From positions 25,050,927 through 25,114,926 of the forward strand of contig OX457028.1 in the NCBI GenBank assembly GCA_949752745.1: a stretch of DNA of 64,000 bases, read 5' to 3'. This DNA comes from Protula sp. h YS-2021. Lineage: Eukaryota > Annelida > Polychaeta > Sabellida > Serpulidae. How positions within the stretch are numbered: position 1 is the first letter of the stretch; each line of letters opens with the position of its first letter. A program made the position numbers and the translations under genes. Shown in pieces: positions 19,424 to 61,184 of the stretch. The notes under the pieces are model-generated. The model was not told the origin of the DNA and did not search any database. It saw only the letters and a program-made list of their open reading frames with translations.

Positions 19424-22268
19424 AAAATTAACTGCAAGTAAAGCGGCTGTCGTAAAATGAAGTGTCCAACCTAATTCGGCGAATCTTCTCATCACAATAT
19501 CTTGTAGTTGTGACATCGGATATCCCATGTCCTTTGCTTCTTCTATAATGTCACTGCGCATGAACTCTTCTATAACTTCCGGTTTCACCTTATGACACCG
19601 CTTTAGTTTTCTTACTGGTGGTTTCTTTGTCTGTAAGACAGAATATAATCTGTTCGTTTGGGGTCTGGTGTTCAGCGACCATTAAGGCTCTATTGGGACG
19701 CACTTGATAAAGGAACAAGAAAGAATAAAGAATTAGTAATTAGTAATAGCCAGAAAGAATTTCCCGATTCTTCGCATCCTACAGGTATGCAGGGAACAGC
19801 CAGCAGTGTGACCCCACCCCACCCTACCTCCACCCCACCCGACTGGTCACCTCCTACAGGTATGCACGGAACAGCCAGCAGTGGGACCCCACCCCACACC
19901 ACCTCCACCCCACCCGACTGGTCGCCTCCTACAGGTATGCACGGAACAGCCAGCAGTGGGACCCCCCCCCCCCACCCCACCTCCACCCCACCCGACTGGT
20001 CGCCTCCTACAGGTATGCATGGAACAGCCAGCAGGGGCCCCCCACCCCACCCCATCTCTCCACACACGACTGGTCGCCTCCTAAAGGTATGCACGGAACA
20101 GCCAGCAGGGGCCCCCCACCCCACCCCATCTCTCCACACACGACTGGTCGCCTCCTAAAGGCATGCACGGAACAGACAGCAGTGGGAGTTTTCTTACGAT
20201 TTCCAACCCGCAGTGGGGGGGGGGGGGTGAATAGACAGTAACATTTTCAATAAAAAACTTTACGTATAGTTCTTTCCTCGCTAATATATATGATCTGATG
20301 CCTGAATTATCATCCTGGTCATTTTTTTCAAACGTGACGAAGTGCTTCTAGAATGACCAGTTCTAAAGATGCATCCACTAAATATACCCTTTTCTGATTT
20401 ATTTAATGAAGTAGGGGTGGGGAATGTGGGAATAAAATTTACTTACTCCAGGTGTGGGATACTGCTTGGTGATGTGGTCCACATAGTCATCTCCCTTTTT
20501 TATTCGCAAATAGCCACACTTTGGGAACCAGCGTGCGTGCTCCAGCCAAGGATCGTCGTTGCCTTCCCAGTTACGTAACCCCCCTCCACAGAAGAAACAT
20601 TTCACATTGTCGGTTTGTCCTGAAAGAAGTAACGGAACTAATCAAGTTTTATCTGGATAAATAGATACATCCATATCTACATACATAGATAATATGTAGT
20701 TTCACCTAAATAAATACAGTAAACAAACAACACATATACGGATTATTTTTAATGTAATTAAATAATTTGTCATGCAAAAATTTCATAAAGAATCGTATTA
20801 ATGAAATACAGCATGGAAAAGTTCAATTGCTATGCGTTTCCTTATCGAAATTCACCAAAAATTATTTAACCTGTGAAGAAGAACCCCGCCCCAGCGAACT
20901 CTTCCGGTGTCCTGTTTGAGTCACTACAGAAATCCACCAAACTGGAAAGTCGTTCTGTCAGTGTTGCCATGTGTGGATATAGGGCTTGTGCCGTCAAGAT
21001 CCCCAGCTTGTCATCCTCCAGCTGCGAATCGACACAAAACAGACATTATTACAAGCGCACTTTTACATATTTCAATTATATCGTTTAACAACTGTCTTTC
21101 CCCTTCAGTAAAACACACACAAATGTATTTTTAAATTCAGTATTAAGAAGAGAGCGGTTAATTTCATCCAGACAGGGGTAAAGCTGCCTAAAGCTGTAGA
21201 TTAGTGGCAAACATAGTCAGCATCGAATAATATACAATACTATATCATTAATTAATATAAGCTAACCTCATGATCTGTTTGAATGTCTTTCCTGAGACGC
21301 ACTCCAGGCAGTTGACTGGCCAAGGGTATGTTTCCTTCAGACTTGGGATCGCGAAGGAACGGGCAAGAGGGAAAGTGTTTTTTATGTTCATCTAAAGCAA
21401 GGTCAGTTGGCTGCCAGTTTCTCAGAACGCCTTTGCAAAAGGCACATTGAACACGGTCTTCTGTGCCAAGGTAACAGAAACCAGCCTTAGCAAGCTCTGG
21501 TGGGCGAATGGACGAACTACTGGGCCAAAAGAGGTACGAATCCAAACGCGTCTGTTCATTCTTGAAGTTGTGCATGCCTTGTAGCTCATCATTCAATGTT
21601 GGGAGGGGCGGGGGAGGTCTCAACCAGGCAGGTGACTCCGAAAAAGTGTTATTGAGACGTAGTGCATCTGGAATATTGGTCACTGTGCTATTTGTAAATA
21701 AACCCGTGTTATTGTTTATCGCTGTTGCATTGCCTGATAGGCCATCCGGTTCATGGTGCTGTGGAGGAGTGGTAGGTTCGTCCGTATCCGTTTCAATACC
21801 ACCTGGACCTTGATACGCCCGATTCAGCACTTCATCTTGTCGCAGCTCCCGATACATTCCCTTGTCCTGACTTGTAATACATAATGGTGATACATCCGGC
21901 AACAGCTGTTTGAAATCTCTAGCTTTCCTTTGGAGCTGGCAATCTTGTGTTGTAAACGGTACATTTTCCTTGGCACCGTCAGCCAAGAAGGGACAAAGAG
22001 GGGATTGCTCCCTGTGCAATGTTAGTGGACTCTTGCATCCATCCATTGACGACATATCGCTTACTTCCAACCCGCATTTGAAACAGATAACTAAGTGTTC
22101 TTTCAGATTGTAATAAAACCCGGCGTTGGCCAGTGTCGAGGCAGATGTTCTGCAACCGGAAGGACGTTTACTAAATGTAGCCAACCGCAACCCTTCAAAT
22201 TTCATAGACTCTTCTAAGTTGGGCAGTTTGCCAGTTTTTAATTGAGCAAAATAAGGTTCCATAGACAT
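16049..22268 (-). CDS. Inhibitor of apoptosis protein: three BIR, UBA, C-terminal RING
   Basis: Likely caspase-binding E3 ubiquitin ligase. Minus-strand exons: 22268-21267, 21021-20871, 20619-20447, 19630-19471, 19095-19003, 18748-18611, 17097-17027, 16171-16049. All are GT..AG and phase-consistent; 636 residues. BIR1 ~24-97 is atypical: CFKC to the Zn-binding His is 19 residues instead of 16, and the usual Trp is missing. BIR2 ~239-306 has CAFC-x16-H-x6-C. BIR3 ~354-430 (exons 2-3) has [21 protein letters not shown], a full IBM-groove (type II) BIR. Exon 4 encodes a UBA-like helix bundle ([17 protein letters not shown]). Exon 6 is a Lys/Arg-rich linker. RING ~588-636 (CKVC, KCGH, CPIC) is split over exons 7-8. 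The architecture matches XIAP/cIAP2-type proteins without CARD. MSMEP was chosen as start because an upstream in-frame ATG (22304) is followed by an acceptor-like TTTAG. The exon 4 donor (TTAG/GTTGGA) is weak. Confidence 0.92.
16283..16547. mobile_element. MITE with CAGTGGCGGC ends in IAP intron 7
   Basis: Ends are CAGTGGCGGC (16283) and GCGCCGCCACTG (to 16545), inverted to each other. The hexamer AACACA flanks both sides (16277-16282 and 16548-16553), fitting a target-site duplication. The interior is G-rich with no ORF. It sits between the two exons that split the RING. Confidence 0.65.
17463..18330. repeat. Dispersed repeat built of degenerate TTGATATCAA-type palindromes (copy 1)
   Basis: About 870 bp of irregularly repeated words (TTGATATCAA, TTTTTGATCTCAAAA, GATAGCAAAAAT). 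It begins GAATGCCATTTT and ends GGCATTCC, short imperfect inverted ends. A second copy in the same orientation lies at 51289-52053 and shares its order of blocks, for example GACGATTCGTTAAATTTTAT versus GATGATTCGTTAAATTTTAT. Lies in IAP intron 6. Confidence 0.75.
19770..20180. repeat. Minisatellite, 74-78-bp unit, five to six copies, in IAP intron 3
   Basis: Each unit carries CCTCCTACAGGTATGCA, then GGAACAGCCAGCAG, then a C-rich CCCCACCCCACC block. The last two units are nearly identical to each other (CCTCCTAAAGG variant), showing recent turnover. Long open frames across it (proline/threonine-rich) are a by-product of the unit and run antisense to IAP. Confidence 0.9.
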
Positions 22269-22290
22269 TTTGAGGGTAAAACACGATTTA

Positions 22291-22944
22291 CTAAAGATAC
22301 ACAAGTCTATAAAATGTCGAAATTTTGTGATTTAATAAGGTTTTTTCGTGTTTTGTCTTTTTGCACAATGAGTTATGAGTTCTTTTATTTTTTAGTTGAT
22401 TTGCATGAGTTTGTTCTATAAGCGTGATGGTATTGAAATCATGCTTCAAGGTCCTGTTATGAGCGTAATTCCTTGCTTTTCTAACAAACCACTGAATTGT
22501 GTTGTGATTTGATTTTGGTTCCTCGTCCGGTAAATTTTCATCACCATAAGTAACGTCGTACACACGCGAAGTTGTACTCGGCGTAGAACCATCGACAGCT
22601 ATGTCGTTGGTTGAATGGCTGCTGTAGTCCGAAAAGCTCGGTAATCGTGATTCCAAATTAACTAAATGACTGTAAAACAATGGCCGGCAAAAGGCTGTGG
22701 TGTCCACACAGATTCTACTTAAAGAACTTCCTCTAAGTTCTCCCGGATCTATTGCTAACAAGGATGTATCTTGTGTAGCATAGAATTCATTTCTAATTTT
22801 GTGTTCTTTTGTTGGAACATCAAAAGCAAGAAATTCTTCTAAAGCTCCAATAATTGTATCAGGATTTGGATCTCTGTCTGTCTCAGCAGGAGCTATAGGC
22901 CGTGAATTGTTTTTGGAACCGTCTCTCAGCTCGTGAACCATCAT
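22291..22944 (-). CDS. Hypothetical protein, 217 aa, directly upstream of the IAP start
   Basis: Not recognised. A single uninterrupted frame starts MMVHELRDG and ends 22 bp before the IAP ATG. Residues ~1-150 have a protein-like mixed composition (GALEEFLAFDVP, VDTTAFCRPLFYSH, a Ser/Thr-rich patch). The C-terminal third is basic and low-complexity (KNKRTHNSLCKKTKHEK). An acceptor-like TTACAG precedes it at about 22970. It may be an upstream exon of the IAP transcript, an independent small gene or chance. No signal peptide or membrane segment. Confidence 0.35.
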   Translation of the reverse strand: MMVHELRDGSKNNSRPIAPAETDRDPNPDTIIGALEEFLAFDVPTKEHKIRNEFYATQDTSLLAIDPGELRGSSLSRICVDTTAFCRPLFYSHLVNLESRLPSFSDYSSHSTNDIAVDGSTPSTTSRVYDVTYGDENLPDEEPKSNHNTIQWFVRKARNYAHNRTLKHDFNTITLIEQTHANQLKNKRTHNSLCKKTKHEKTLLNHKISTFYRLVYL

Positions 22945-44776: not shown

Positions 44777-45023
44777 GTAATAATAATAATAATAATAATA
44801 ACGGGACTCGGTTTGGATTTCATAATTAATCTTAATATGTACTTTGAACTCCAAGCATGACTCCCTCACTTTTTACTGAAGCTTCATTGTTTCACTGGTT
44901 CGTTATTAAATTAGCAATAATTGCATCATTTTATTTAAGCTATTTTTTTTTCTTTTCTTAAGGTTTATCTTAAGTTATTTAGCAATTTTACACTTTTTTC
45001 TCCTCTTCCTGTCTTGTCTATAG
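44493..45023 (+). other. Candidate 5'-leader intron of the Ngaro-type element
   Basis: GCGA/GTGAGTAA at 44493 is a near-consensus donor. A long pyrimidine tract ending TCTTGTCTATAG at 45023 is a strong acceptor, three bases before the gag ATG. It contains a (TAA)n run at 44723-44803. Splicing would bring the leader next to gag; the unspliced RNA would be the genomic form. Confidence 0.5.
44723..44803. repeat. (TAA)n microsatellite inside the element's leader
   Basis: About 24 TAA units with two small interruptions (TGG, ACG). Confidence 0.95.
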
Positions 45024-45025
45024 AT

Positions 45026-45916
45026 ATGGCTCCAAAACGAAAGGCATCTAAAGCAACTGCTGCTTCCTCCAAGAAGACAAAAAAAGATGACATTGTCCAG
45101 GAAGTCGTCCAGCAGCTCCAACCAGTAATCGCCCAAGCTATACAGGACGCCATTGCGACACAAACGCCGGTCACAAATCGGGAAACATTAAATCAGGAAG
45201 ACCAAGACGAGGACCTTGAAGTTTTATTTCGGGATGCGGACGATCCACACCTTGAAGGTGAGCCTATCAATTCAGCCTCCAGTACTCTGCACCTACATGT
45301 CGCCAGGAACGTTCTGGACAAAATTAAGCGTGATCAGTACGTTTCCTTAGTTGAGTTGCTGAACCCGGATGAACAAGACATTAGCCTTAATATTTCACAC
45401 AGTGGCAGTGTGACTCTCAATAAGAAGGCCAAGCAGCTCAAAATTGCATCCTGTGAGCAATGGTTTTCAGCTTTTTTAATTTTCTCTTCAATTTATCAAG
45501 AATACTTTCCAGATAAGTCACGGCAGCTCTTTAAATATATGTCGTTTGTACAAGGCTTGTATAAATCGTTCGGTCTAGAAGCTGCTCTCAAGTACGATGA
45601 GGACTTCCGTAAATTCAGGGAGCGTTCCCCTGATCTTACATGGGATAGTCTTCATCAGGAAATTTATTTGTTGGCCGCAGCAAAATCGGCACAGTTGAAA
45701 CAGTTCCGTTCCCAAAGCCAGCCCTTTCGGAAAAACGTGTTCTGTCCCCCGGGTTATTGCAGACAATTTAATTCCCAGGGAATCTGCACATGGTCAAACT
45801 GCGTGTACAAACACGAATGCTTTAAATGTCAAAGTGACCACCCAGGCAGAACATGCCGCACCACTGAATTTACCAATGGCAAGCAAAACAAAACCCTCGC
45901 CAAACCTAAAAAATAG
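45026..45916 (+). CDS. Gag-like protein of the Ngaro-type element
   Basis: 296 residues from the ATG at 45026. It opens with a basic stretch (MAPKRKASKA, then KKTKKD) that could be a nuclear-localisation signal. A coiled, Gln-rich segment follows, then a central region WFSAFLIFSSIYQEYFPDKS typical of DIRS/Ngaro gags. The C-terminal zinc-binding region has CRQFNSQGICTWSNC, YKHECFKC and HPGRTC. It probably packages element RNA. It overlaps the next frame by up to ~80 nt, in a different reading frame. Confidence 0.88.
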   Translation: MAPKRKASKATAASSKKTKKDDIVQEVVQQLQPVIAQAIQDAIATQTPVTNRETLNQEDQDEDLEVLFRDADDPHLEGEPINSASSTLHLHVARNVLDKIKRDQYVSLVELLNPDEQDISLNISHSGSVTLNKKAKQLKIASCEQWFSAFLIFSSIYQEYFPDKSRQLFKYMSFVQGLYKSFGLEAALKYDEDFRKFRERSPDLTWDSLHQEIYLLAAAKSAQLKQFRSQSQPFRKNVFCPPGYCRQFNSQGICTWSNCVYKHECFKCQSDHPGRTCRTTEFTNGKQNKTLAKPKK

Positions 45917-47507
45917 TTATTCTTTACCCACACCAATTGATCCAGATAGGCTTGCCATATTGCTGCAAAATTACCCCCACAAACAGTTTTTGATTGACGG
46001 TTTTCGCTACGGCTTTAACCTCAGATATGATGGTCCCGATCTAAAATACGAACTTCCGAATAATAAATCAGCTACAGACCGGAAAGATATTCTTATTTCT
46101 AAGATCAATAAGGAGATACAATTAGGCCGCGTGTCAGGCCCCTTTTCACACCCTCCTCTTCCACATTTTCGCGTCAGCCCCTTAGGACTGGTACCCAAAA
46201 AGGAAAAAGGCAGCTTTAGACTCATTCATGACTTGAGTCAGCCAAAAGATATTTCTGTAAATTCTGGCATTGATGACATTTATTCTTCGGTCAGGTATGA
46301 GACTTTTGATCAAGTTGTAACATTAATTTTACAAAAAGGAAAGGGTGCATTAATGTCTAAATGTGATATCCTAGATGCATTTCGAATCATTCCTATAACT
46401 AAACGGGACCATCATTTGTTAGGTTTTAAAGTAAATGGCAAGTATTATTACGATACGGTATTACCTATGGGATGCCGCATAAGTTGTAATGTGTTCGAGC
46501 AATTTAGTACAGCAATGCAGTGGGTCATAAAGAACATTTATAAGTTCAGCGATATGTCGCATATTTTGGACGACTTCATTTTTGTTGGATCGGCGGGATC
46601 CTTTGAATGTATGCGGGGTCTTCAGTCTTTCATTCGACTGTCAAAATTTCTTGGTATACCTCTAAAAGAGTCAAAAACCGTGCTTCCAACTACATGTGCG
46701 GTTTTGCATGGTATAGAAGTAAACGCTTTGCAAATGCAGGCCAAGTTGCCCCAGGATAAAATTGACAAAGCAGTCGGTTTAATAAATCAAATCATAAAAC
46801 TACATGTTGTAAAACTGCGTGATGTTCAAAAAATCGTTGGTTTGTTAAATTTCTGTTGTAAATGTATAAAACCAGGTCGTGCCTTTCTCCGAAGACTGTG
46901 GGATATTACTTGTGGTCATGTGAACAGAGAACAATTAATTCCATTAACTATGTCCGCCAAACAGGATTTGCACACTTGGCTTGTTTTCTTACGAGAATTT
47001 AATGGCATCACGTTATTAAATACGGATATATGGCTATCTCAAAATCAGTTCAATGTTTTTACTGATGCCAGTAAATCCGTGGGTTATTCTGCGGTCTTGG
47101 ATAATGAGTGGTTTTACGGCACATGGGATGACTCTTTCAAACAATATAATATTGTTATCCTAGAGCTTATCCCGATAGTAATCGCCGTGCACCTGTTTTC
47201 ACAGAAACTGAAAAACAAAAGTGTGATTTTACACACAGACAACTTGGCTCTTGTGTCCATCATAAATAATCAAACAACAAAATGTACATTGACCATGCAT
47301 TTAGTTAGAAAATTAGTGGTTAGATCCTTGATAGATAACATATGTTTACACGCTGTCCATTTATCTTCATCACAGAATAGAATATCAGATTTGCTATCTC
47401 GTTTGAAGGTAAATGCCGCAAAGGAAATGGCACCTCATTTAGACGACGATCCTCTTATTGTTCCCAAGGAGCTGGATCCATGCTGTTTATTGCGACCACT
47501 ATGGTGA
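45834..47507 (+). CDS. Reverse transcriptase-RNase H of the Ngaro-type element
   Basis: Frame open from 45834 (first ATG 45876), overlapping gag, so expression may need frameshifting or re-initiation. RT blocks: GSFRLIHDLSQP, MSKCDILDAFRIIPI (first catalytic Asp), VLPMGCRISCNVFEQF, HILDDFIFVG (LDD catalytic pair), LGIPLKESKT. The RNase H domain follows: FTDASKSVGYSA, ELIPIVIAV (Glu), LHTDNLALVSIINNQ (Asp), and a C-terminal RISDLLSRL motif common in this class. Full-length, no stop or frameshift seen. Confidence 0.95.
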   Translation: MTTQAEHAAPLNLPMASKTKPSPNLKNSYSLPTPIDPDRLAILLQNYPHKQFLIDGFRYGFNLRYDGPDLKYELPNNKSATDRKDILISKINKEIQLGRVSGPFSHPPLPHFRVSPLGLVPKKEKGSFRLIHDLSQPKDISVNSGIDDIYSSVRYETFDQVVTLILQKGKGALMSKCDILDAFRIIPITKRDHHLLGFKVNGKYYYDTVLPMGCRISCNVFEQFSTAMQWVIKNIYKFSDMSHILDDFIFVGSAGSFECMRGLQSFIRLSKFLGIPLKESKTVLPTTCAVLHGIEVNALQMQAKLPQDKIDKAVGLINQIIKLHVVKLRDVQKIVGLLNFCCKCIKPGRAFLRRLWDITCGHVNREQLIPLTMSAKQDLHTWLVFLREFNGITLLNTDIWLSQNQFNVFTDASKSVGYSAVLDNEWFYGTWDDSFKQYNIVILELIPIVIAVHLFSQKLKNKSVILHTDNLALVSIINNQTTKCTLTMHLVRKLVVRSLIDNICLHAVHLSSSQNRISDLLSRLKVNAAKEMAPHLDDDPLIVPKELDPCCLLRPLW

Positions 47508-48388
47508 TCAATAGTCTGTCAGTATCAACCCGCTCTGTGTACAAAAGATCGTGGGAACATTTTCAAAAAACATGTAAAATGTTCGCTCAGCCAGCTTGTC
47601 CTGCATCAATCAATGCGTTGCTTATATATATTGCGTATTGCTCTTGTCAAGGTTTTTCATACAATACAGTGTTAACTCGCATGTCTGCAATTGCGTTTAT
47701 TCATCGCTTTAAACAGAAACCAGACCTCACCCAAGAATTCTTAATTAGAAAGGCTTTGGTTGGTTACAAAAATAAACATTATCATTCTGACCATAGAAAG
47801 CCCATTTCCGTGAGTTTGCTACACAGAATGTGTGACGTTCTTCCTCAAATATTTAGTGAATATTATAATCTTGCTTTATTTAAATCCTTATTTTTATTAG
47901 CATTTCATGCCTTTCTTCGTGTTGGTGAATTCACTTCCACATCCGCCAACAATCCAAATTTGTTATTAGCTAATAATATTAAAATTAAAAGGAAGCAAGG
48001 AAAACCAGTCGGTTTAACTATCCACTTTGAACAATTTAAGCATAGTAAGGGTAGACACTTTGATTTGCATATACCCTCTTCCCCCGGCCCCTTTTGCCCC
48101 GTTGAAGCGATGTCAAATTATTTAAAACTTCGTACACAAAAAGTTGGTTCTCTCTTCGTTTTAAAAAGCGGAAAGCCTATTTCTCCATCGTTTTTTAATA
48201 CCGTTCTCAAATCGGCATTAATTCTCTCCCTTGGTACTTGTAAGGGTTATACTTCACATTCCTTTCGAATAGGTGCCGCGACATATTGCCTCCAAAAAGG
48301 TTTAAATAAAACACGCATTTCTCATATTGGCAGGTGGCGTTCTAATGCTATTGATAAATATTTTCGCGTACCGTCTTTCACAGTGTGA
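47480..48388 (+). CDS. Tyrosine recombinase of the Ngaro-type element
   Basis: Integrates the circular DNA copy. The RT stop overlaps the ATGGTGA start/stop at 47501-47507; an earlier in-frame ATG at 47480 gives 302 residues. The N-terminal helical core-binding region reads STRSVYKRSWEHFQKTC and NALLIYIAYC. Catalytic residues: Arg in AFLRVGEF, a Lys in FEQFKHSKGRH, His-x-x-Arg in HSFRIGAAT, Trp in IGRWRS, and the Tyr nucleophile in AIDKYFR. The complete R-K-HxxR-W-Y set suggests an active enzyme. Confidence 0.95.
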   Translation: MLFIATTMVINSLSVSTRSVYKRSWEHFQKTCKMFAQPACPASINALLIYIAYCSCQGFSYNTVLTRMSAIAFIHRFKQKPDLTQEFLIRKALVGYKNKHYHSDHRKPISVSLLHRMCDVLPQIFSEYYNLALFKSLFLLAFHAFLRVGEFTSTSANNPNLLLANNIKIKRKQGKPVGLTIHFEQFKHSKGRHFDLHIPSSPGPFCPVEAMSNYLKLRTQKVGSLFVLKSGKPISPSFFNTVLKSALILSLGTCKGYTSHSFRIGAATYCLQKGLNKTRISHIGRWRSNAIDKYFRVPSFTV

Positions 48389-52053: not shown

Positions 52054-52669
52054 ATATGAAACGACATGTTAGTAACAAAAACTGTTCGGAAAAGCAGTTA
52101 CATTTTTGAACTGTTTATTTCATGAGCCCTCACACGAGCTGATAAGTTTTTGCCTGTAATCGGTAATAACACGATTTGAAGTAAACTAATATGCTACCAA
52201 AGTTTCTGGAAAGCAAGTTTTAAATCCTACAGAATTTAAAAAACTGAAATCTTTAGAAAACCTCTGCTTTAATACTATTGAATGATAATTAAAAGGTGCG
52301 TCAATCCTGTTTCTTAGTCGACGCTGGCTCGTTTTCAAGTTCTACCGAGACTAGCGGTCAATTGCGAGGGCAGTCTTCGGAGATAGATCCGTTATAGTTT
52401 TGATATCTTCCAGTTCAAACCCCCTCCCCAAGCAATTTTACCTCGTTTTCACCCCAATCTTTTTTTGTTCTCATTCCATTTTTATGTAACTGAAATTCTG
52501 TGTATCTTTTCGTCATTGCTACCTCTTAACCTTTCCCTACAGTTCCGCGACAGAAGCACAGTACTGGAAGGTCAGGTATATGAGTGCACTCTGAAACTAT
52601 TTCTGGTTGAAGTCATTGCGACAGGGACAAATACTGCACAAGCTTCTGATGACCCTGTGCTGGTATATC

Positions 52670-52856
52670 TGTAGTAGTAGGAAAATAAGGGTTCTGGAAC
52701 AGGAAGTGACGTCATCAGACCCCCCTCCCCCCTCCCCTCCCCCTCCCAGGGGTCGACTGTCAGAGGTGAAGATCCCCCTACCCCCCCTACCCCCACCCTC
52801 TACCCCCCTACCCCCCTCCCCCTACCCCCCCCTACCCCCCACCCCCCTACCCCCCC
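52670..52856. repeat. Extra G/C module outside the left arm
   Basis: Begins GTAGTAGTAGGAAAATAAGG, includes GTGACGTCATCAGACC (CRE palindrome TGACGTCA) and GGGGTCGACTGTCAGAGGTG, then a CCCCCTA-rich run. Same module as 53810-53945 and, inverted, 60133-60250. Confidence 0.85.
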
Positions 52857-53879
52857 TGGTTCAGATCAGTGACGGATACATTGTGGGAAATTGTTGGGGA
52901 GGGGGGGCCCTTGCCCTTTTTTATGAATGTCTCAAAGTTCTATGATTTACCATGATTTTCAGGGTTTGGTTATTGTGTGGGCGGAGGGCGGGGGGGGGGG
53001 GGGGGTTATGGGGCGAGGCCCCTGCCGATTTTCGTGACTGTCGAAAGTGTTGCGATTTGCCTTGATTTTCCGGGTTTGGTTATTGAATTCCCCGAGTGTG
53101 CCAAGGACCCCTCATTCCTGTAGGATAATCGACCAAGCGCTGCGGATTTGTAGAGACGACATATCAACAGCAACAGACACCGACTTTCTCTTCGACAGAG
53201 TATTATAACACCACAGTGATGTCAGCGGCGTTTTGGTTCGGTTGTCTGTATGAGTAGAATATTTACAGAGCAAAATCTTCACAGAGATACACTATTAAGA
53301 TTGCGGAACGTAGTTGTTGTGGGATGCGTCTCTTTCTAAGATGTAAATCATTGCAGTTTGCTTAATTAAGAGTATTTCGAGTTGGAGATGTCATCGAAAG
53401 GAGATTGTATTTTATTTTTCAAATTGGTATTTTCTTTTAGTTCATTTTGTGGTTTTGATTGTAGCAACTGCAATAAATTATACAACTCTGGCGTTTTATT
53501 CCATTCGCGTGCTTACATTAATTTCAGGGCCTTCACTGCTATACCAGAATCTTTGTGCTCTGTACGTAGCTTTTACCAATGCCTTGTGCGTTTTGTCTGT
53601 TACTTTCTCTTATATTTGTTTACTCCACGATGCAAAGTAAATGTTAAAACCTTCGAAAGACTGAATTTTTGAAGCGGTGAAAATGAGTAAAGTGCACAAG
53701 CGAATACCAAGACAGGAAAGAAGTAAAATTAATAACCTCTCCCTCCGTCCACTGCAGGCTTTTCCCATTGGGAACATCCTTGCTCCCCGCATGCCATATC
53801 GAACAGATAGTAGTAGGAAAATAAGGGTTCTGGAACAGGAAGTGACGTCATCAGACCCCCCTCCCCACTCCCCCCAGGG

Positions 53880-53945
53880 GTCGACTGTCAGAGGTGAAGA
53901 CCCCCCTACCCCCCTACCCCCCTACCCCCCTACCCCCCACCCCCC
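53880..53945. repeat. (CCCCCTA)n run in the left-arm module
   Basis: Several CCCCCCTA units in a row; the complement is TAGGGGGG, able in principle to form G-quadruplexes. The mirrored run is at 60133-60160. Confidence 0.8.
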
Positions 53946-55129
53946 CGGCTAAGAAAATTTTGCGATTTCAGCATAGTTATCCGTTTCAGACAATTCTAAG
54001 CAACTTTGGTTTTGAGGACCCCCCCCTCTTACTTAAAATTGCGATAACTTTCGTTATAGTTGACCGATTTGTATCAAAATTTCACTGTTTGATTCAGTTT
54101 TATGTAAACTTTTGTTATAAAGTAATCATAGGCTAGTTGCGCAGCTGGCTGTATGCATATTTATAGCATGTAGCCATTTTAACTTAAAACTGGGATAACT
54201 TTTGTTATACTTGACCGATTTACCTGGAAATTTCGCTGTTTGATTCAGTTTTCTATCTAGTTTTGACATAGTCATGGGCTATTTGCACACCATTTTGTTC
54301 AGTTATTTCTTGTGTTATTTCGCGGATGAATACCATTTTGGCTTGACCGCTAGATGTCTCTGCTGTACAGCTCTACAACTGTATGTGAGACATTCTGCTG
54401 AGTCAGCAATTTTAACGAGTTTGAACAAGTTACACACCATATTTTGATTGCATCGAAGTAGTATAAAAGCAGACCTTTTTGTTCTGCTTGGAAAAACTTG
54501 GACAAACTTTTAGTTTTTGGTTTTTATGACTCTATGACATTATGTGACAACATGTGACTGTGACATTTTGTAATCTATGACATTATGTGACTGTCTGTGA
54601 CTTTTTTTTTTAACATAATAGCCATATTTCTATGTCTATTTTCACTGTTATTATTATGCTAATATTTAATTAGTCATATTTCAATGGTTTTATTACAATA
54701 ACCACACGCACACACAGCATAGGAATAAGTACATGAAAGGTCTCAGAGTGTGGGGAAACCAATCAATAAATTTCAGAGTGCACTCGCTCAGAGCGTGGGA
54801 ACGATCAATAATTTGAGAAGGAATGGGATTTTCCCTACGTTAAGTCCAATGTTATGTTTTATGTTATAGTAGTTGGAAATGGTGCAAACTTTAGCAAATG
54901 TAGTTTTTGACAACATATGATATATAAAATAAGTTTTAGCATTTTACCATGGTACTTATTCAAATATTCTAAAGTTATAGTGGTGCAGAAATGGTGGTTC
55001 TAGACCAACTTAAACAAATATAGTTTTTCACGTTTCAAACAATTCTACCACTTGGTTGGTGGGTTGATTGTTGGAAAATGGGAAGTGAAAATGTGGATAG
55101 TTATGTAGGAAAACTGCGCCCATTCAAAC

Positions 55130-55235
55130 ATGTGTTCGAATGGCAAGCCCATTTAAAAGACGTGTTCGAATGGCAAGCCCATTTAAAAGACGTGTTCGAA
55201 TGGCAAGCCCATTCAAAACACGTGTTCGAATAATT
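55130..55235 (+). repeat. ~31-bp iterons in the arm
   Basis: Tandem GTGTTCGAATGGCAAGCCCA units followed by TTTAAAAGAC or TTCAAAACAC, three to four copies. Mirrored in the right arm at about 58715-58825. Confidence 0.85.
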
Positions 55236-55262
55236 TTTGGAAGATATTAGGTCGTGGTATTG

Positions 55263-55500
55263 TTCAACAAATTGTTCAACATGTTGAACATGTTCAACAA
55301 ATTGTTCAACATGTTCAACATGTTGTTCAACATGTTCAACATGTTCAACATGTTGTTCAACATGTTCAACATGTTCAACATGTTGTTCAACATGTTCAAC
55401 ATGTTCAACATGTTGTTCAACATGTTCAACATGTTGTTGTTCAACATGTTCAACATGTTGTTGTTCAACATGTTCAACATGTTGTTGTTCAACAAGTTGT
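55263..55500. repeat. Palindromic CAACATGTTG array, left arm
   Basis: About 19 AACATGTT cores spaced 9-12 bp apart (TTCAACATG units with TTG spacers). The array is self-complementary throughout and lies just upstream of a TATA box. The Asn/Met/Leu and Phe/Asn/Met open frames across it are artefacts. Confidence 0.9.
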
Positions 55501-55502
55501 TG

Positions 55503-55578
55503 TATATAAAGCTATGTTTAAAGACTTTCTCATCATTTGAATAGTGTAGGTTGAACCGAAAGGATGTATCAATGCAAC
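55503..55578 (+). pseudogene. Severed copy of the zinc-finger promoter and first codons
   Basis: TATATAAAGC at 55503-55512 and ATG at 55564 copy the right arm's promoter and start. The frame keeps MYQCNICSKSYNW and is lost where the arm ends at 55610. It is positioned to transcribe toward the PC4-like gene. Confidence 0.75.
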
Positions 55579-55661
55579 ATTTGTTCAAAATCTTACAACT
55601 GGCCACAAAGGCAAACGTGGTAAAGTTATTTCTATACATATTAAGTCAACTCACTATAAAG

Positions 55662-55669
55662 TATAAAAG
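55662..55669 (+). promoter_or_regulatory. TATA box of the PC4-like gene
   Basis: TATAAAAG, followed about 30 bp later by the presumed start site; it lies just inside the unique centre. A 28-codon upstream frame (ATG 55725, MSGVSEQQLPS) overlaps the main start in another frame. Confidence 0.55.
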
Positions 55670-55786
55670 GCAGCCGCCCTCAGACCTAACACAGCATTCT
55701 ATATCAAGATACTGAAGTGTGAACATGTCTGGAGTGAGCGAGCAACAACTACCATCTATGACAATGCTGTACAAAAGTCTGAGACA

Positions 55787-56290
55787 ATGCCTGCAGAAAA
55801 TTTTATGGTAAAGCCTGAGACAATACCTACAGCAAAGTCTAAGGCAATGCCCATGGTAAAGTCTAAGGCGAAGTCATGTCAGCAGCGTCAAAAGCGACCA
55901 CATCTTAGAAAGAGAAAAAGAGATGAGTTACCAGCTATGACGCCGCCGTGTAAAAAGCGAAAAATTAAGACAGAGCCTAAAATGAAGCGAGAACCAGAGT
56001 GTAAAGCTGCTACCACCATGAAGAAGATGGGTGTAGACGATTTACCGGTTATGATACCTATTGATGGAGAAATATATATTAAATTGGGGAAATATCAACA
56101 GAAAGTGATGGTTAACATTCGTGAATATATTACGGATCATACATCTGGGAGGTTACATCCTACCAAGAAGGGAATTTTGTTGTCATTGAACGATTGGCAC
56201 ATGCTGAAGAAGCAAATGACGTCAGTGGATCTCATGCTTCAGCAAATGGATTTGTATAAATGCAGTCACTGTCAGAAAATTGTTGAGTAG
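55787..56290 (+). CDS. Basic protein with a PC4/SUB1-like ssDNA-binding domain
   Basis: 167 residues. Residues ~1-80 are Lys/Arg-rich with two nuclear-localisation-like clusters (RKRKR ~41-45, KKRKIK ~56-61). Residues ~94-154 resemble the PC4/SUB1 (p15) C-terminal fold: IYIKLGKYQQKVMVNIREY, then TKKGILLSLNDWHMLKKQM and a hydrophobic helix (VDLMLQQMD). In SUB1 this fold dimerises and binds single-stranded DNA. The last ten residues include CSHC, possibly half a zinc site. No zinc-finger or catalytic domain. Transcribed toward the zinc-finger gene. An overlapping upstream start (55725) may tune translation, or a frameshift or unseen intron may separate a longer N-terminus. PC4 assignment is by eye; function in the element is inference. 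Confidence 0.75.
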   Translation: MPAENFMVKPETIPTAKSKAMPMVKSKAKSCQQRQKRPHLRKRKRDELPAMTPPCKKRKIKTEPKMKREPECKAATTMKKMGVDDLPVMIPIDGEIYIKLGKYQQKVMVNIREYITDHTSGRLHPTKKGILLSLNDWHMLKKQMTSVDLMLQQMDLYKCSHCQKIVE

Positions 56291-56576
56291 ACAGCGAGAT
56301 GACTGTATACATTTTAACTGCATGACGAGCTTAGTGAATGCTATGATTTCATCACCCTCAGTGTAGAAGATTGGACAAGAACTTGAAAATTAGGTTTGAC
56401 TCATATGGATATATACATTTGATATGTAGTTCAAATAAAATTGTCTTCATATGTAGGCTATGAAATTAACATGATGTATGTTAATGTGAAGTTTTTGTGA
56501 ATCTGCACATGTATTAACATAATATGTATTTGAAATAGTTTTGTTTGTATCATAATTGTACATATTTGCGATATTC

Positions 56577-56610
56577 AATAAAAACACATATGATGCTTTT
56601 CAACTTTTTA
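56577..56610. terminator. Overlapping poly(A) signals between the convergent genes
   Basis: Plus-strand AATAAA occurs at about 56578 for the PC4-like gene. On the minus strand, TTTATT near 56607 reads AATAAA for the zinc-finger gene. The two 3' ends therefore face each other or overlap. Confidence 0.5.
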
Positions 56611-56827
56611 TTTTTCTCATACAATACTTGAATATAATACATAATAATACAAAATTAACTATAATACCTAATATATGATATATGGTTTACGGGTCAATTA
56701 AAACCACGTCAGGAACCTTGCGACTTTATATGTTGCAAAGCAAGACATATATTAATACACAACGCTTAAGCGAATAAAATATTACAACATTTATAAAGTC
56801 TTTATCATAAAGTTTAGTCAAATAAGT

Positions 56828-58387
56828 CTATTTTTCTTCATCTGTTTCACTCTGCTCACTCTCCATGTCACTTTCTTCATCACTGCTGTCATACTCCTCT
56901 TCCTTATCTAGTAGCTCTTCAAAGAATGCATTGTTTTTCCTTATAGCAGCCTTTAGTGCCTTTGAATACTTGTAATCTTTTTCATCCACAAAGTACCGGG
57001 AGTTTCCGAAAAGAAGCTCCCCCCATATAAAAGCCCCGGGGCTTTACTGTTTCCCAATAGAAGCCCCGGGGCTTCTATTTGGAGTTAAAATAAAGACCTA
57101 AAAAAATCGTTTCCTAATAGAAGCCCCCTCCTTCCCTGCCAGTCTTTTAGAACTCATGTTTACTCGCAATGCAGACGCGGTTCACTTAATCCTTTGATAT
57201 GAGGCAGCCCCTAAACATGTTCTGCGTCGTTGTTTAATCCTGTGTTTTGCACAGGGCGAACAGACGCCTCCCCCCTTCCACTGCCACCTTTACTCTGGAG
57301 TATTACTAGAAATATAAGGGGCGGAGTACTGAAACAGGCGGCGTGAAGTTGCCCCCTCCTTCCCTGCAAGTCTTTTTAGAACTCGTGTTTACTCGCGATG
57401 CAGACACGGTGCACTTAATCCTTTGATGACAGGCAAACCCATAGACACGTTCTGCGTCGTTGCTTAATTCTGTGCTTCACACAAGGCAACCCCCTCCACT
57501 TTACCAGACTTGTTTAGTTACTGTTGTTTTTGTGTGTTTAGTTATTTATTATTATTTTTTTTTGGATATCCGCAGCATGTAGCGCTTAAATTGATGGTAA
57601 ATTTTCTTTTTTTCCAATAAAAACTTATCGACAACACCCCGTCCCCCCCCCAGCTAAAAAATAGAAGCCCCGGGGCTCTAATTAGGAAACTGTTTCCTAA
57701 TAGAAGCCCCGGGGCTTTTATTTGGTTCCGTAATGAGCGCCTGAAATCGGCCAGTTTCCAAATAGAAGCCCTGGGCTTTTTTTTCGGAAACCCCCGGTAA
57801 TTAAAGTCCTTTAAAATCTTTTGATAATGTTGGCTTTCTACTAGACGCTGGGTATATTTGAATAGTCTCATAAACAGTTGTTTAAGTCCATGTTTATAAA
57901 TGGGTCGAAGGTCATAGCTTGCCATTTCACGCGGATCTTCAAGTCCTTGTTCTTCATATTCTGAAACTTTTTCTTGAAATTTGTCATCATAGGCATCGTA
58001 GACTTCTTGAACCATATCATACCAGACAGAGTCTATTTCTGACTCACTTTCAGAGTCTGTTTCTGACTCACTTTCAGAGTCTGTTTCTGACTCACTTTCA
58101 GAACTCCTGTCATCGGCATCCTCACCACACTGCTCCATATGTTTGAGCAAAGCTTCTTCGCTGTTGTATAATGCACCACATTCTGCACAAGCATGTGCAT
58201 TCTTTTCAGCCATGTTAACGCTTTCACTTTCCATAGAAGATTCATCGAAAGTTTTCGTGAAAGGTAGTTTTACAGGGTTCTCCATATCCGATTCTTCGTC
58301 CACTTTTGACGTGTGAGCAACCTTTAAGTGTCTTTTAAGACTTTGTGACCAGTTGTAAGATTTTGAACAAATGTTGCATTGATACAT
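56828..58387 (-). pseudogene. Acidic C2H2 zinc-finger protein, interrupted by an 802-bp MITE
   Basis: ATG at 58387. The first finger is C4-x2-C7-x12-H20-x4-H25 (MYQCNICSKSYNW). The second (HACAECGALYNSEEALLKHM) is a C2HC-type finger. A Ser/Glu/Asp tract follows, coded by a short tandem DNA repeat at 58029-58105, then a helical domain (VWYDMVQEVYDAYDDKFQEK, RPIYKHGLKQLF). At codon 197 the frame runs into the insertion 56996-57797. Beyond it the frame resumes in register for 54 more codons, ending in an acidic tail at 56828. The uninterrupted gene was about 251 codons. The frame currently continues into the insert and stops at 57542. Probably a DNA-binding regulator; the target is unknown, but the palindromic array beside its own promoter is a candidate. 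Confidence 0.75.
56996..57797. mobile_element. 802-bp MITE with TA target duplication
   Basis: Ends CCGGGAGTTTCCGAAAAG and TTTTCGGAAACCCCCGG are inverted. TA flanks both sides (56994-56995, 57798-57799). The subterminal regions carry repeated AAGCCCCGGGGCTT palindromes (near 57040, 57063, 57665, 57706). The interior is two diverged ~220-bp direct copies (about 57125-57260 and 57350-57490 cores). No ORF of its own; TA duplication suggests mobilisation by a Tc1/mariner-superfamily enzyme. Confidence 0.88.
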
Positions 58388-58440
58388 CCTTTCGGTTCAA
58401 CCTACACTATTCAAATGATGAGAAAGTCTTTAAACATAGC

Positions 58441-58448
58441 TTTATATA
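58441..58448 (-). promoter_or_regulatory. TATA box of the zinc-finger gene, within the right arm
   Basis: TATATAAA on the minus strand, ~55 bp before the ATG, immediately after the palindromic array. Confidence 0.6.
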
Positions 58449-58452
58449 CAAC

Positions 58453-58690
58453 AACATGTTGAACATGTTGAACAACAACATGTTGAACATGTTGAACAAC
58501 AACATGTTGAACATGTTGAACAACATGTTGAACATGTTGAACAACATGTTGAACATGTTGAACAACATGTTGAACATGTTGAACAACATGTTGAACAACA
58601 TGTTGAACATGTTAAACAATATGTTGAACATGTTGAACATGTTTAACAATTTGTTGAACATGTTGAACATGTTGAACAATTTGTTGAACA
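58453..58690. repeat. Palindromic CAACATGTTG array, right arm
   Basis: Inverse counterpart of 55263-55500, upstream of the zinc-finger gene's TATA box, with slightly different unit spacing. Confidence 0.9.
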
Positions 58691-61184
58691 ATACCACGAC
58701 CTAATATCTTCCAAAAATTATTCGAACACGTGTTTGGAATGGGCTTGCCATTCGAACACGTCTTTTAAATGGGCTTGCCATTCGAACACGTCTTTTAAAT
58801 GGGCTTGCCATTCGAACACATGTTTGAATGGGCGCAGTTTTCCTACATAACTTCCCATTTTCCAACAATCAACCCACCAACCAAGTGGTAGAATTGTTTG
58901 AAACGTGAAAAACTATATTTGTTAAAGTTGGTCTAGAACCACAACTTCTGCACCACTATAACTTTAGAATATTTGAATAAGTACCATGGTAAAATGCTAA
59001 AACTTATTTTATATATCATATGTTGTCAAAAACTACATTTGCTAAAGTTTGCACCATTTTCCAACTACTATAACATAAAACATAACATTGGACTTAACGT
59101 AGGGAAAATCCCATTCCTTCTCAAATTATTGATCGTTCCCACGCTCTGAACGAGTGCACTCTGAAATTTATTGATTGGTTTCCCCACACTCTGAGACCTT
59201 TCATGTACTTATTCCTATGCTGTGTGTGCGTGTGGTTATTGTAATAAACCCATTGAAATATGACTAATTAAATATTAGCATAATAATAACAGTGAAAATA
59301 GACATAGAAATATGGCTATTATGTTAAAAAAAAGTCACAGACAGTCACATAATGTCATAGATTACATAATGTCACAGTCACATGTTGTCACATAATGTCA
59401 TAGATTACATAATGTCACAGTCACATGTTGTCACATAATGTCATAGAGTCATAAAAACCAAAAAACTAAAAGTTTGTCCAAGTTTTTCCAAGCAGAACAA
59501 AAAGGTCTGCTTTTATACTACTTCGATGCAATCAAAATATGGTGTGTAACTTGTTCAAACTCGTTAAAATTGCTGACTCAGCAGAATGTCTCACATACAG
59601 TTGTAGAGCTGTACAGCAGAGACATCTAGCGGTCAAGCCAAAATGGTATTCATCCGCGAAATAACACAAGAAATAACTGAACAAAATGGTGAAATTTTCA
59701 TGTAAATCGGCCAAGTATAACAAAAGTTATCCCAGTTTTAAGTTAAAATGGCTACATGCTATAAATATGCATACAGCCAGCTGTGCAAATAGCCCATGAC
59801 TATGTCAAAACTAGATAGAAAACTGAATCAAACAGCGAAATTTCCAGGTAAATCGGTCAGGTATAACATAAGTTATCCCAGTTTTAAGTTAAAATGGCTA
59901 CATGCTATAAATATGCATACAGCCAGCTGCGCAACTAGCCTATGATTACTTTATAACAAAAGTTTACATAAAACTGAATCAAACAGTGAAATTTTGATAC
60001 AAATCGGTCAACTATAACGAAAGTTATCGCAATTTTAAGTAAGAGGGGGGGGGGGGGGGGTCCTCAAAACCAAAGTTGCTTAGAATTGTCTGAAACGGAT
60101 AACTATGCTGAAATCGCAAAATTTTCTTAGCCGGGGGGGGGGTGGGGGGTAGGGGGGTCTTCACCTCTGACAGTCGACCCCTGGGGGGGAGGGGGGGTCT
60201 GATGACGTCACTTCCTGTTCCAGAACCCTTATTTTCCTACTACTATCTGTTCGATATGGCATGCGGGGAGCAAGGATGTTCCCAATGGGAAAAGCCTGCA
60301 GTGGACGGAGGGAGAGGTTATTAATTTTACTTCTTTCCTGTCTTGGTATTCGCTTGTGCACTTTACTCATTTTCACCGCTTCAAAATTTCAGTCTTTCGA
60401 AGGTTTTAACATTTACTTTGCATCGTGGAGTAAACAAATATAAGAGAAAGTAACAGACAAAACGCACAAGGCATTGGTAAAAGCTACGTACAGAGCACAA
60501 AGATTCTGGTATAGCAGTGAAGGCTCTGAAATTAATGTAAGCACGCGAAGGGAATAAAACGCCGCTTGGACAGAGTTGTATAATTTATTGCAGTTGCTAC
60601 AATCAAAACCACAAAATGAAATAAAAGAAAATATCAACTTGAAAAATAAAATACAATCTCCTGTCGATGACATCTCCAACTCGAAATACTCTTAATTAAG
60701 CAAACTGCAATGATTTACATCTTAGAAAGAGACGCATCCCACAACAACTACGTTCCGCAGTCTTAATAGTGTATCTCTGTGAAGCTTTTGCTCTGTAAAT
60801 ATTCTACTCATACAGACAACCGAACCAAAACGCCGCTGACATCACTGTGGTGTTATAATACTCTGTGGAAGAGAAATTCGGTGTCTGTTGCTATTGATAT
60901 GTCGTCTCTACAAATCCGCAGCGCTTGGTCGATTGTCCTACAGGAATGAGGGGTCCTGGGCACACTCGGGGAATTCAATAACCAAACCCGGAAAATCAAG
61001 GCAAATCGCAACACTTTAGACAGTCACGAAAATCGGCAGGGGTCTCGCCCCATAACCCCCCGCCCTCACAATAACCAAACCCTGAAAGTCATGGTAAATC
61101 ATAGAACTTTGAGACATTCACAAAAAAAGGGCAAGGCCCCCCCCCAACACCTTCCCACAATGCATCCGTCACTGATCTGAACCA

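What the first reader, a model, noticed from the sequence alone, without database searches (positions are those of the whole stretch)
52670..61184. Undescribed-looking 8.5-kb inverted-repeat element with PC4-like and zinc-finger genes
Sequence shows 2.8-kb inverted arms, a 2.7-kb centre with two convergent non-transposase genes, and arms loaded with palindromes, iterons and G-runs. A PC4-like ssDNA-binding protein together with hairpin-capable termini hints at replication through single-stranded or fold-back DNA, as in some ssDNA viruses and fold-back elements. No known class I can name has this gene pair. Function is inference.
Basis: partly seen in the sequence, partly recalled or inferred. 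Interest (0 to 1): 0.92.

Follow-up and report, generated by a model that had tools for sequence, protein, structure and literature searches.

The report
Gene-carrying satellite of a Polinton transposon
This is one of many copies of a short mobile DNA element that carries the ends of a Polinton (a virus-like giant transposon) but none of its enzymes, and keeps two small genes of its own, so it probably lives as a passenger of full Polintons in the same animal-like genome.

Summary
The inverted-repeat structure is real: a copy of a dispersed family of non-autonomous Polinton (Maverick) elements. Ends are AGTAGTAGG...CCTACTACT with 6-bp target duplications (14 of 14 small elements; both full Polintons; looser rule 17 of 20 pairs including the window, slid control 0 of 120). 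The same tips bound 16.6-kb Polintons in this genome (integrase, PolB, ATPase, protease), which also carry a PC4 gene beside PolB (29 of 41 PolB copies). Of 19 small elements, none matches the Polinton integrase, PolB, ATPase or protease; 17 have PC4. pN/pS is 0.29 for the zinc finger and 0.55 for PC4, whose interval reaches 1.02. A scrap of a downstream Polinton gene follows PC4. The window copy is damaged: an 802-bp insertion splits the zinc-finger gene and the PC4 start is out of frame. Best reading: a gene-bearing Polinton satellite mobilised in trans; the function of its genes is inferred.

The parts
52667..52672 (.). target site duplication ATCTGT, left
   Evidence: matches 60245-60250
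52673..52856 (+). outer left terminus of the element (AGTAGTAGG... then C-rich CCCCCCTA repeats)
   Evidence: shared with other copies; end and TSD
52857..53808 (-). inverted copy of the right flank lying between the outer tip and the inner end; read as host DNA, not part of the element family
   Evidence: 97.6% identical over 928 ungapped columns; matched only at these two places (query ended at 53670)
53809..55610 (+). left element arm (terminal inverted repeat, about 1.8 kb): tip, subterminal repeats, 43-bp, 30-bp and GTTCAACAT-type repeats, TATA-like boxes, truncated copy of the zinc-finger gene start (last two read by eye)
55787..56290 (+). PC4-like gene (167 aa in frame; 187 aa in L009, L011 and L013 from an upstream ATG that is out of frame here)
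   Evidence: PF02229 5.8e-12; 150 genome matches, capped
56831..56995 (-). 3' part of the zinc-finger gene, cut off by the insertion
   Evidence: 99.4% identical to the L009 gene
56996..57797 (.). 802-bp insertion with TA on both sides and inverted ends CCGGGAGTTTCCG/CGGAAACCCCCGG, splitting the zinc-finger gene
   Evidence: ends read by eye
57798..58387 (-). 5' part of the C2H2 zinc-finger gene
   Evidence: zf-C2H2; 97.5% identical to the L009 gene
58341..60244 (-). right element arm (terminal inverted repeat), overlapping the start of the zinc-finger gene
60245..60250 (.). target site duplication ATCTGT, right
60245..61184 (+). right flank, source of the inverted duplication

Best explanation
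The element is a non-autonomous, gene-bearing derivative (a satellite) of PC4-carrying Polintons. Shown: it shares tips and 6-bp target duplication size, and in most copies tested subterminal repeats, with 16.6-kb Polintons of the same genome; it lacks their enzymes and keeps two genes; its PC4 gene has a homologue beside the Polinton PolB; a scrap of a Polinton gene two places past PC4 follows it. Inferred: it arose by internal deletion of a Polinton; a helper Polinton's PolB copies it from the shared ends and the helper's integrase inserts it with a 6-bp duplication; PC4 coats or melts single strands during protein-primed copying or boosts promoters in the arms; the zinc-finger protein binds the arm repeats and sets expression or replication. 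In the window copy a later template switch through the inverted arms copied 0.95 kb of right flank, inverted, into the left end; a separate insertion broke the zinc-finger gene.
For: Ends and TSDs: 14 of 14 small elements, 2 of 2 Polintons, 17 of 20 pairs under a looser rule with 0 of 120 slid controls. Subterminal repeats shared with L015/L017 at 84-92% identity in 3 of 4 satellites compared. In the 16.6-kb elements: rve 6.1e-9, adenovirus-type protease 3.3e-4, A32-like ATPase 0.0066 (last two below Pfam's curated cut-offs); PolB with relatives named DNA-directed DNA polymerase. In 19 small elements: 0 match integrase, ATPase, protease, PolB or two capsid-region ORFs, 17 match the Polinton PC4; positive control found each protein in Polinton pieces. 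PC4 beside PolB in 29 of 41 PolB copies and in both 121-aa-class loci examined. PC4s 45% identical over 65 aa, 61 bits. Downstream remnant, E 7e-8 against eight Polinton pieces. Zinc-finger relative P0002 has a Polinton-type ATPase N terminus, 39%, 4e-27. At least 150 copies. Zinc-finger pN/pS 0.29, bootstrap 0.17-0.57.
Against: No mobilisation was observed. PC4 pN/pS is 0.55 with 33 of 1000 bootstraps at or above 1, and copies came from top-scoring hits, so constraint on PC4 is weak evidence. L033 shares no detectable arm stretch with L015 or L017, and the one Polinton right end compared (L016) matches satellites less well, 68-91% in short pieces. No zinc-finger homologue was found in the eight Polinton pieces; its origin rests on one 2.3-kb contig (P0002). 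The PC4s are only 45% identical, so the split is old and the direct parent is not identified. Flank copies differ by 2.4%; the inner arms by 0.65% outside the short-repeat array but 2.4% with it; if the lower figure holds, a simple post-insertion duplication needs later exchange or conversion. L032 lacks a matching TSD and has unlike tips.
Confidence: 0.82

Rival explanations
1. Ordinary non-autonomous Polinton debris: an internal-deletion derivative that amplified by luck, whose PC4 and zinc-finger genes are passengers without function.
For: The 2.2-kb L014 and 3.8-kb L012 elements have the same ends and 6-bp duplications and no PC4 or zinc-finger match (L012 holds 200 N), so the genes seem not to be required in cis for insertion. 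PC4 pN/pS interval reaches 1.02.
Against: Zinc-finger pN/pS 0.29 with 1 of 1000 bootstraps at or above 1; 135 of 150 PC4 and 114 of 150 zinc-finger matches without an internal stop (counted by eye, top-scoring matches only); zinc finger found at least in part in 20 of 20 loci fetched for their PC4.
Confidence: 0.25
2. A fold-back or ssDNA-virus-like element that replicates through hairpin ends with a PC4-type single-strand-binding protein.
For: Long inverted arms, PC4-like protein, C/G-run ends; inverted neighbouring copies recur (for example C2:69575465-69579754 and C1:79721119-79725069).
Against: Ends with 6-bp duplications shared with integrase/PolB elements; no Rep-like ORF noticed in L009, L010 or L013 (read by eye). 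G4-forming ends are not constant: 0 in L030 and L033.
Confidence: 0.05
3. A cut-and-paste transposon family (for example Ginger-like or Foldback/Galileo) with captured host PC4 and zinc-finger genes.
For: Long repetitive arms resemble Foldback/Galileo; integrase-type transposases also move Ginger. These resemblances are recalled, apart from the Ginger passages.
Against: Ginger duplications are 4 bp, or 5 bp in TDD-4/5 (PMC2836005 passages), not 6; tips are those of Polintons; PC4 is a Polinton gene here.
Confidence: 0.03

Closest known systems
Polinton/Maverick
   Same: 6-bp target duplication, long terminal inverted repeats, near-identical tips to full Polintons of this genome, PC4 gene shared
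   Different: no match to their PolB, integrase, ATPase or protease; the gene-bearing elements measured are 4.8-7.1 kb instead of 16.6 kb; long arms for its size
Non-autonomous DNA transposons / MITEs
   Same: mobilised in trans through shared ends (inferred), high copy number, internal-deletion origin (inferred)
   Different: carries two genes, at least one under purifying selection, which such elements normally lose (recalled)
Virophages, transpovirons and other satellites of large DNA viruses
   Same: would work like them: smaller element with own genes that depends on a helper
   Different: no capsid gene found; dependence and packaging not shown; helper is an integrated Polinton
Foldback / Galileo
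   Same: long, internally repetitive inverted arms
   Different: 6-bp duplication and Polinton tips; no P-type transposase relative was looked for beyond ORF reading
PC4/p15 host coactivator
   Same: PC4 domain (PDB 4usg, 1pcf, 6ycs match)
   Different: encoded in mobile elements, with its own basic N-terminal region

Membership tests
Polinton/Maverick | 6-bp target site duplication | tested here: met
   14 of 14, 2 of 2 full Polintons, 17 of 20 pairs with looser rule, control 0 of 120; definition in PMC8969392 passage
Polinton/Maverick | terminal inverted repeats of hundreds of bases | tested here: met
   arms reach 0.4-2.5 kb in the 15 elements examined
Polinton/Maverick | 5'-AG terminus (recalled) | tested here: met
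Polinton/Maverick | protein-primed PolB gene | tested here: not met
   0 of 19 small elements, window included, match the Polinton PolB; control positive
Polinton/Maverick | retroviral-type integrase gene | tested here: not met
   0 of 19; hence a non-autonomous derivative, not a full Polinton
Polinton/Maverick | ATPase, protease and capsid genes | tested here: not met
   0 of 19 for ATPase, protease and two capsid-region ORFs; those two ORFs are called capsid only by place and size, no significant Pfam match
Satellite of a Polinton | shares cis ends with a helper present in the same genome | tested here: met
   tips; subterminal repeats in 3 of 4 satellites compared; helpers of other tip variants not identified
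Satellite of a Polinton | moves or replicates only with helper proteins | not testable with these tools
   needs experiment
Satellite of a Polinton | own genes maintained by selection | tested here: inconclusive
   zinc finger pN/pS 0.29 (16 copies), PC4 0.55 with interval to 1.02 (27 copies); copies chosen from top-scoring hits
Ginger cut-and-paste transposons | 4- or 5-bp target duplication | tested here: not met
   6-bp duplications; definition from PMC2836005 passages
Foldback/Galileo | 7-bp target duplication (recalled) | tested here: not met
   6-bp duplications
Foldback/Galileo | P-superfamily transposase in a longer relative | not tested
   no search made

The most novel reading that the evidence does not exclude
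A true satellite of an animal Polinton: an element with its own regulatory and replication-accessory genes (PC4 and zinc finger) that parasitises the helper's polymerase and integrase, swaps its tips to match different helper lineages, and perhaps travels in helper capsids, an animal counterpart of virophage or transpoviron systems within one genome.
Probability: 0.35. Interest if true: 0.82.

Novelty: new variant of a known kind. Interest (0 to 1): 0.62.

Why it matters
Non-autonomous elements normally carry no working genes (recalled). Here one reaches at least 150 copies with two genes, at least one showing purifying selection, and both with Polinton links. It makes testable whether Polintons, which have been argued to be viruses (title and abstract start of PMC4028283), have parasites of their own, and it points to a PC4-type protein as a candidate single-strand-binding partner of a Polinton PolB. 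I found no paper joining Polinton and PC4 in the held library (0 papers; related searches), which lacks most subscription papers.

Tried and rejected
Read as one 8.5-kb element with 2.8-kb arms: rejected, since the inner left end is preceded by ACAGAT, the reverse complement of the right TSD, and 52857-53808 mirrors the right flank. PolB by Pfam alone: PF03175 missed the helper's PolB, so it was settled by protein relatives; PDB sequence search gave none. PC4 in the 5.8-billion-protein set: 31 candidates, none at E 1e-3. Relatives in viral contigs: 178 and 191 pattern stretches, none confirmed. PHROGs on four Polinton proteins: only an endonuclease VII stretch in the PolB ORF. Fold of the zinc-finger protein: mean pLDDT 63, helical C-terminal part, no viral match at E 0.001. 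Bay scallop PC4 paper (PMC9223095, outline and passages): five genes, no word beginning 'transpos'; not shown to be related. G-quadruplex ends as a constant feature: rejected. The looser end rule gave a spurious pair in L037 and a mismatched pair in L032, and missed L033 and L034, which one search had found with matching TSDs. PMC9683012 held no passage on target duplications.

Rows dropped: zinc-finger genes that were split, shifted or partial were left out of the pN/pS set (from L021 one copy, L026, L028, L029, L035, L036, L037, L039, L040; also L011 and the window), 16 kept; L010 was kept although it has one internal stop, that codon being skipped. Genome searches scored only 40 of 833, 150 of 6653, 150 of 6204, 150 of 6336 and 41 of 11147 candidates, so copy numbers are lower bounds. 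Of the 32 papers (20 listed) I looked into four by passages only (PMC2836005, PMC8969392, PMC6431247, PMC10294476).
Full report
What was checked. The window is a stretch of contig C5 of an unnamed 863-Mb genome. The inverted arms are real: ungapped blocks up to 495 nt at 96-99% complementarity. The convergent gene pair is real: PC4 (PF02229, 5.8e-12) and a C2H2 protein.

True ends. Searching the genome with the first kilobase of the left arm gave, outside the window, 36 places that share only its outermost 90-185 bases or so, many as facing pairs 2-16.6 kb apart (40 of 833 candidates scored). I fetched eight such pairs. All eight begin AGTAGTAGG, end CCTACTACT and are flanked by identical hexamers: six smaller elements (2.2-6.7 kb) and two of 16.6 kb. 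Twenty further loci, picked by eye at intervals down the PC4 match list, gave eight more pairs, all with matching hexamers, so 14 of 14 small elements. With a looser rule that admits other tip variants, 17 of 20 pairs match, the window included; sliding the left hexamer by 1-3 bases gave 0 of 120. The three misses are L032 (unlike tips), a spurious internal end in L037, and the window's inner left end. The looser rule missed L033 and L034, which one search had found.

The window copy. The matching pair in the window is the outer left tip (52673) and the inner right end (60244), duplication ATCTGT. The inner left end at 53809 is preceded by ACAGAT, the reverse complement, because 52857-53808 is an inverted copy of the right flank 60245-61184: 22 mismatches in 928 ungapped columns. 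The likely cause is a template switch between the near-identical arms, entered at the C-rich tip (inference). The arms differ by 0.65% outside the short-repeat array (9 of 1392) and by 2.4% with it (local alignments over 1638 columns); the flank copies differ by 2.4%, with most differences far from the element by eye. If the lower arm figure is the true one, later exchange of the flank with other haplotypes, or conversion between arms, is needed; neither was tested.

Helper elements. The two 16.6-kb elements, read piece by piece, carry an integrase (rve, 6.1e-9), an adenovirus-type protease (3.3e-4) and an A32-like ATPase (0.0066), the last two below Pfam's curated cut-offs (all three scored on L020), and, in L018, a 1139-aa PolB ORF. 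Pfam missed that PolB, but the 120 relatives listed are 52-75% identical, 8 carry PF03175, and two are named DNA-directed DNA polymerase (Mytilus edulis, Pinctada imbricata). A 463-aa ORF sits where a capsid gene would, without a Pfam match. They fit the Polinton features given in passages of PMC8969392 and PMC12220804. Both also carry a PC4 gene (PF02229, 1.1e-8) just downstream of PolB. A second, 121-aa PC4 class also follows a PolB ORF in both loci examined.

Link between small and large elements. In 19 small elements with both ends, the window included, a translated search with eight Polinton queries found PC4 in 17 and the other seven (integrase in two pieces, ATPase, protease, PolB, two capsid-region ORFs) in none; the control found each in Polinton pieces. 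The small elements share the tip with the Polintons. Against the left ends of L015 and L017, three of four satellites compared share subterminal repeats of about 88 bp at 84-92% identity; L033 shares none, and the one right end compared (L016) matches less well, 68-91% in short pieces. Satellite and Polinton PC4 are 45% identical over 65 residues (61 bits). Past satellite PC4 lies a 39-bp stretch, 87% identical (E 7e-8 against eight Polinton pieces), from the Polinton ORF two genes past PC4, still reading DELSECYDFITLSVEDW against DELTECYDYITLNTVEW. The zinc-finger protein has three relatives at E 1e-3 in 5.8 billion proteins; one, P0002, has an N-terminal part 39% identical (4e-27) to the Polinton ATPase. 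No zinc-finger homologue was seen in the eight Polinton pieces.

Abundance and constraint. The zinc finger was present at least in part in 20 of 20 loci fetched for PC4, and in three of the four PC4-bearing elements fetched by their ends (L011 has only the gene start). pN/pS is 0.29 (0.17-0.57) for 16 zinc-finger copies and 0.55 (0.33-1.02) for 27 PC4 copies. Copies came from top-scoring hits, which favours intact ones, so PC4 constraint is suggestive only. In the window the zinc-finger gene is split by an 802-bp insertion and the PC4 start is out of frame; copies without these faults exist (L009, L013).

How it probably works. Each gene starts in or just inside an arm that carries TATA-like boxes and short-repeat arrays (read by eye). 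A helper Polinton would supply PolB and integrase, which act on shared ends; the satellite would supply PC4 and zinc-finger proteins. That PC4 serves as a single-strand-binding protein in protein-primed copying is inference. It has a functional parallel in the protein-primed phage Bam35, whose SSB stimulates replication (PMC8276246, abstract), though that protein has a different, OB-fold-like domain. The satellites use several tip variants, which I read as exchange with different helper lineages; the helpers of the other tips were not identified.

Novelty. Non-autonomous Polintons as such would be unsurprising. A high-copy one that keeps two Polinton-linked genes is, as far as my searches went, undescribed: Polinton with PC4 gave 0 papers; no paper held 'polintons' with any of four phrases for non-autonomous Polinton or Maverick; PC4 does not occur in the main texts of PMC11071308, PMC10120064 and PMC12220804. 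But 32 papers hold Polinton, non-autonomous and terminal inverted repeats, of which I looked into four by passages, and the library lacks most subscription papers and repeat databases.

Noticed in passing
window 56996-57797: 802-bp insertion with TA on both sides and inverted ends CCGGGAGTTTCCG/CGGAAACCCCCGG inside the zinc-finger gene; a small TA-duplicating transposon by its look.
   Followed up: partly
G000 C2:69575465-69579754, C1:79721119-79725069, C4:18670798-18673600 and others: PC4 and zinc-finger matches recur as inverted neighbours (8 inverted PC4 pairs within 6 kb by my reading), like fused inverted dimers; in the part of one such locus that was fetched (L027) no tip was found between the copies.
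   Followed up: partly
L025, L026, L027, L028, L032, L036, L040: Satellites with similar arms but different terminal 30-50 bases (for example AGTAGTAGGAAAACGACAG..., AGTAGTAGGGAAATGGGCGTTCTACCACAG...), as if tips were swapped to fit other helpers.
   Followed up: partly
L041:628-1675, L042:2024-3084: Three small ORFs between the Polinton PC4 and protease genes share, by eye, a weak YxxITLNxxEW-like motif; 15-21% identity to PC4, no Pfam match. Possibly diverged PC4-like paralogues.
   Followed up: partly
L018:1151-4564 (-), residues 529-573: Endonuclease VII-like stretch inside the Polinton PolB ORF, with C2H2-like motifs at its N terminus by eye.
   Followed up: no
window 44939-48388: ORFs that read like a DIRS-type retroelement (gag, reverse transcriptase, tyrosine recombinase); by eye, not tested.
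   Followed up: no
window 21252-22331 (-): ORF with two BIR-like (IAP-type) repeats; by eye, not tested.
   Followed up: no
L014 (G000 C3:89332900-89335500): 2.15-kb element with the same ends and 6-bp duplication and no PC4 or zinc-finger match, so insertion seems not to need the genes in cis.
   Followed up: partly
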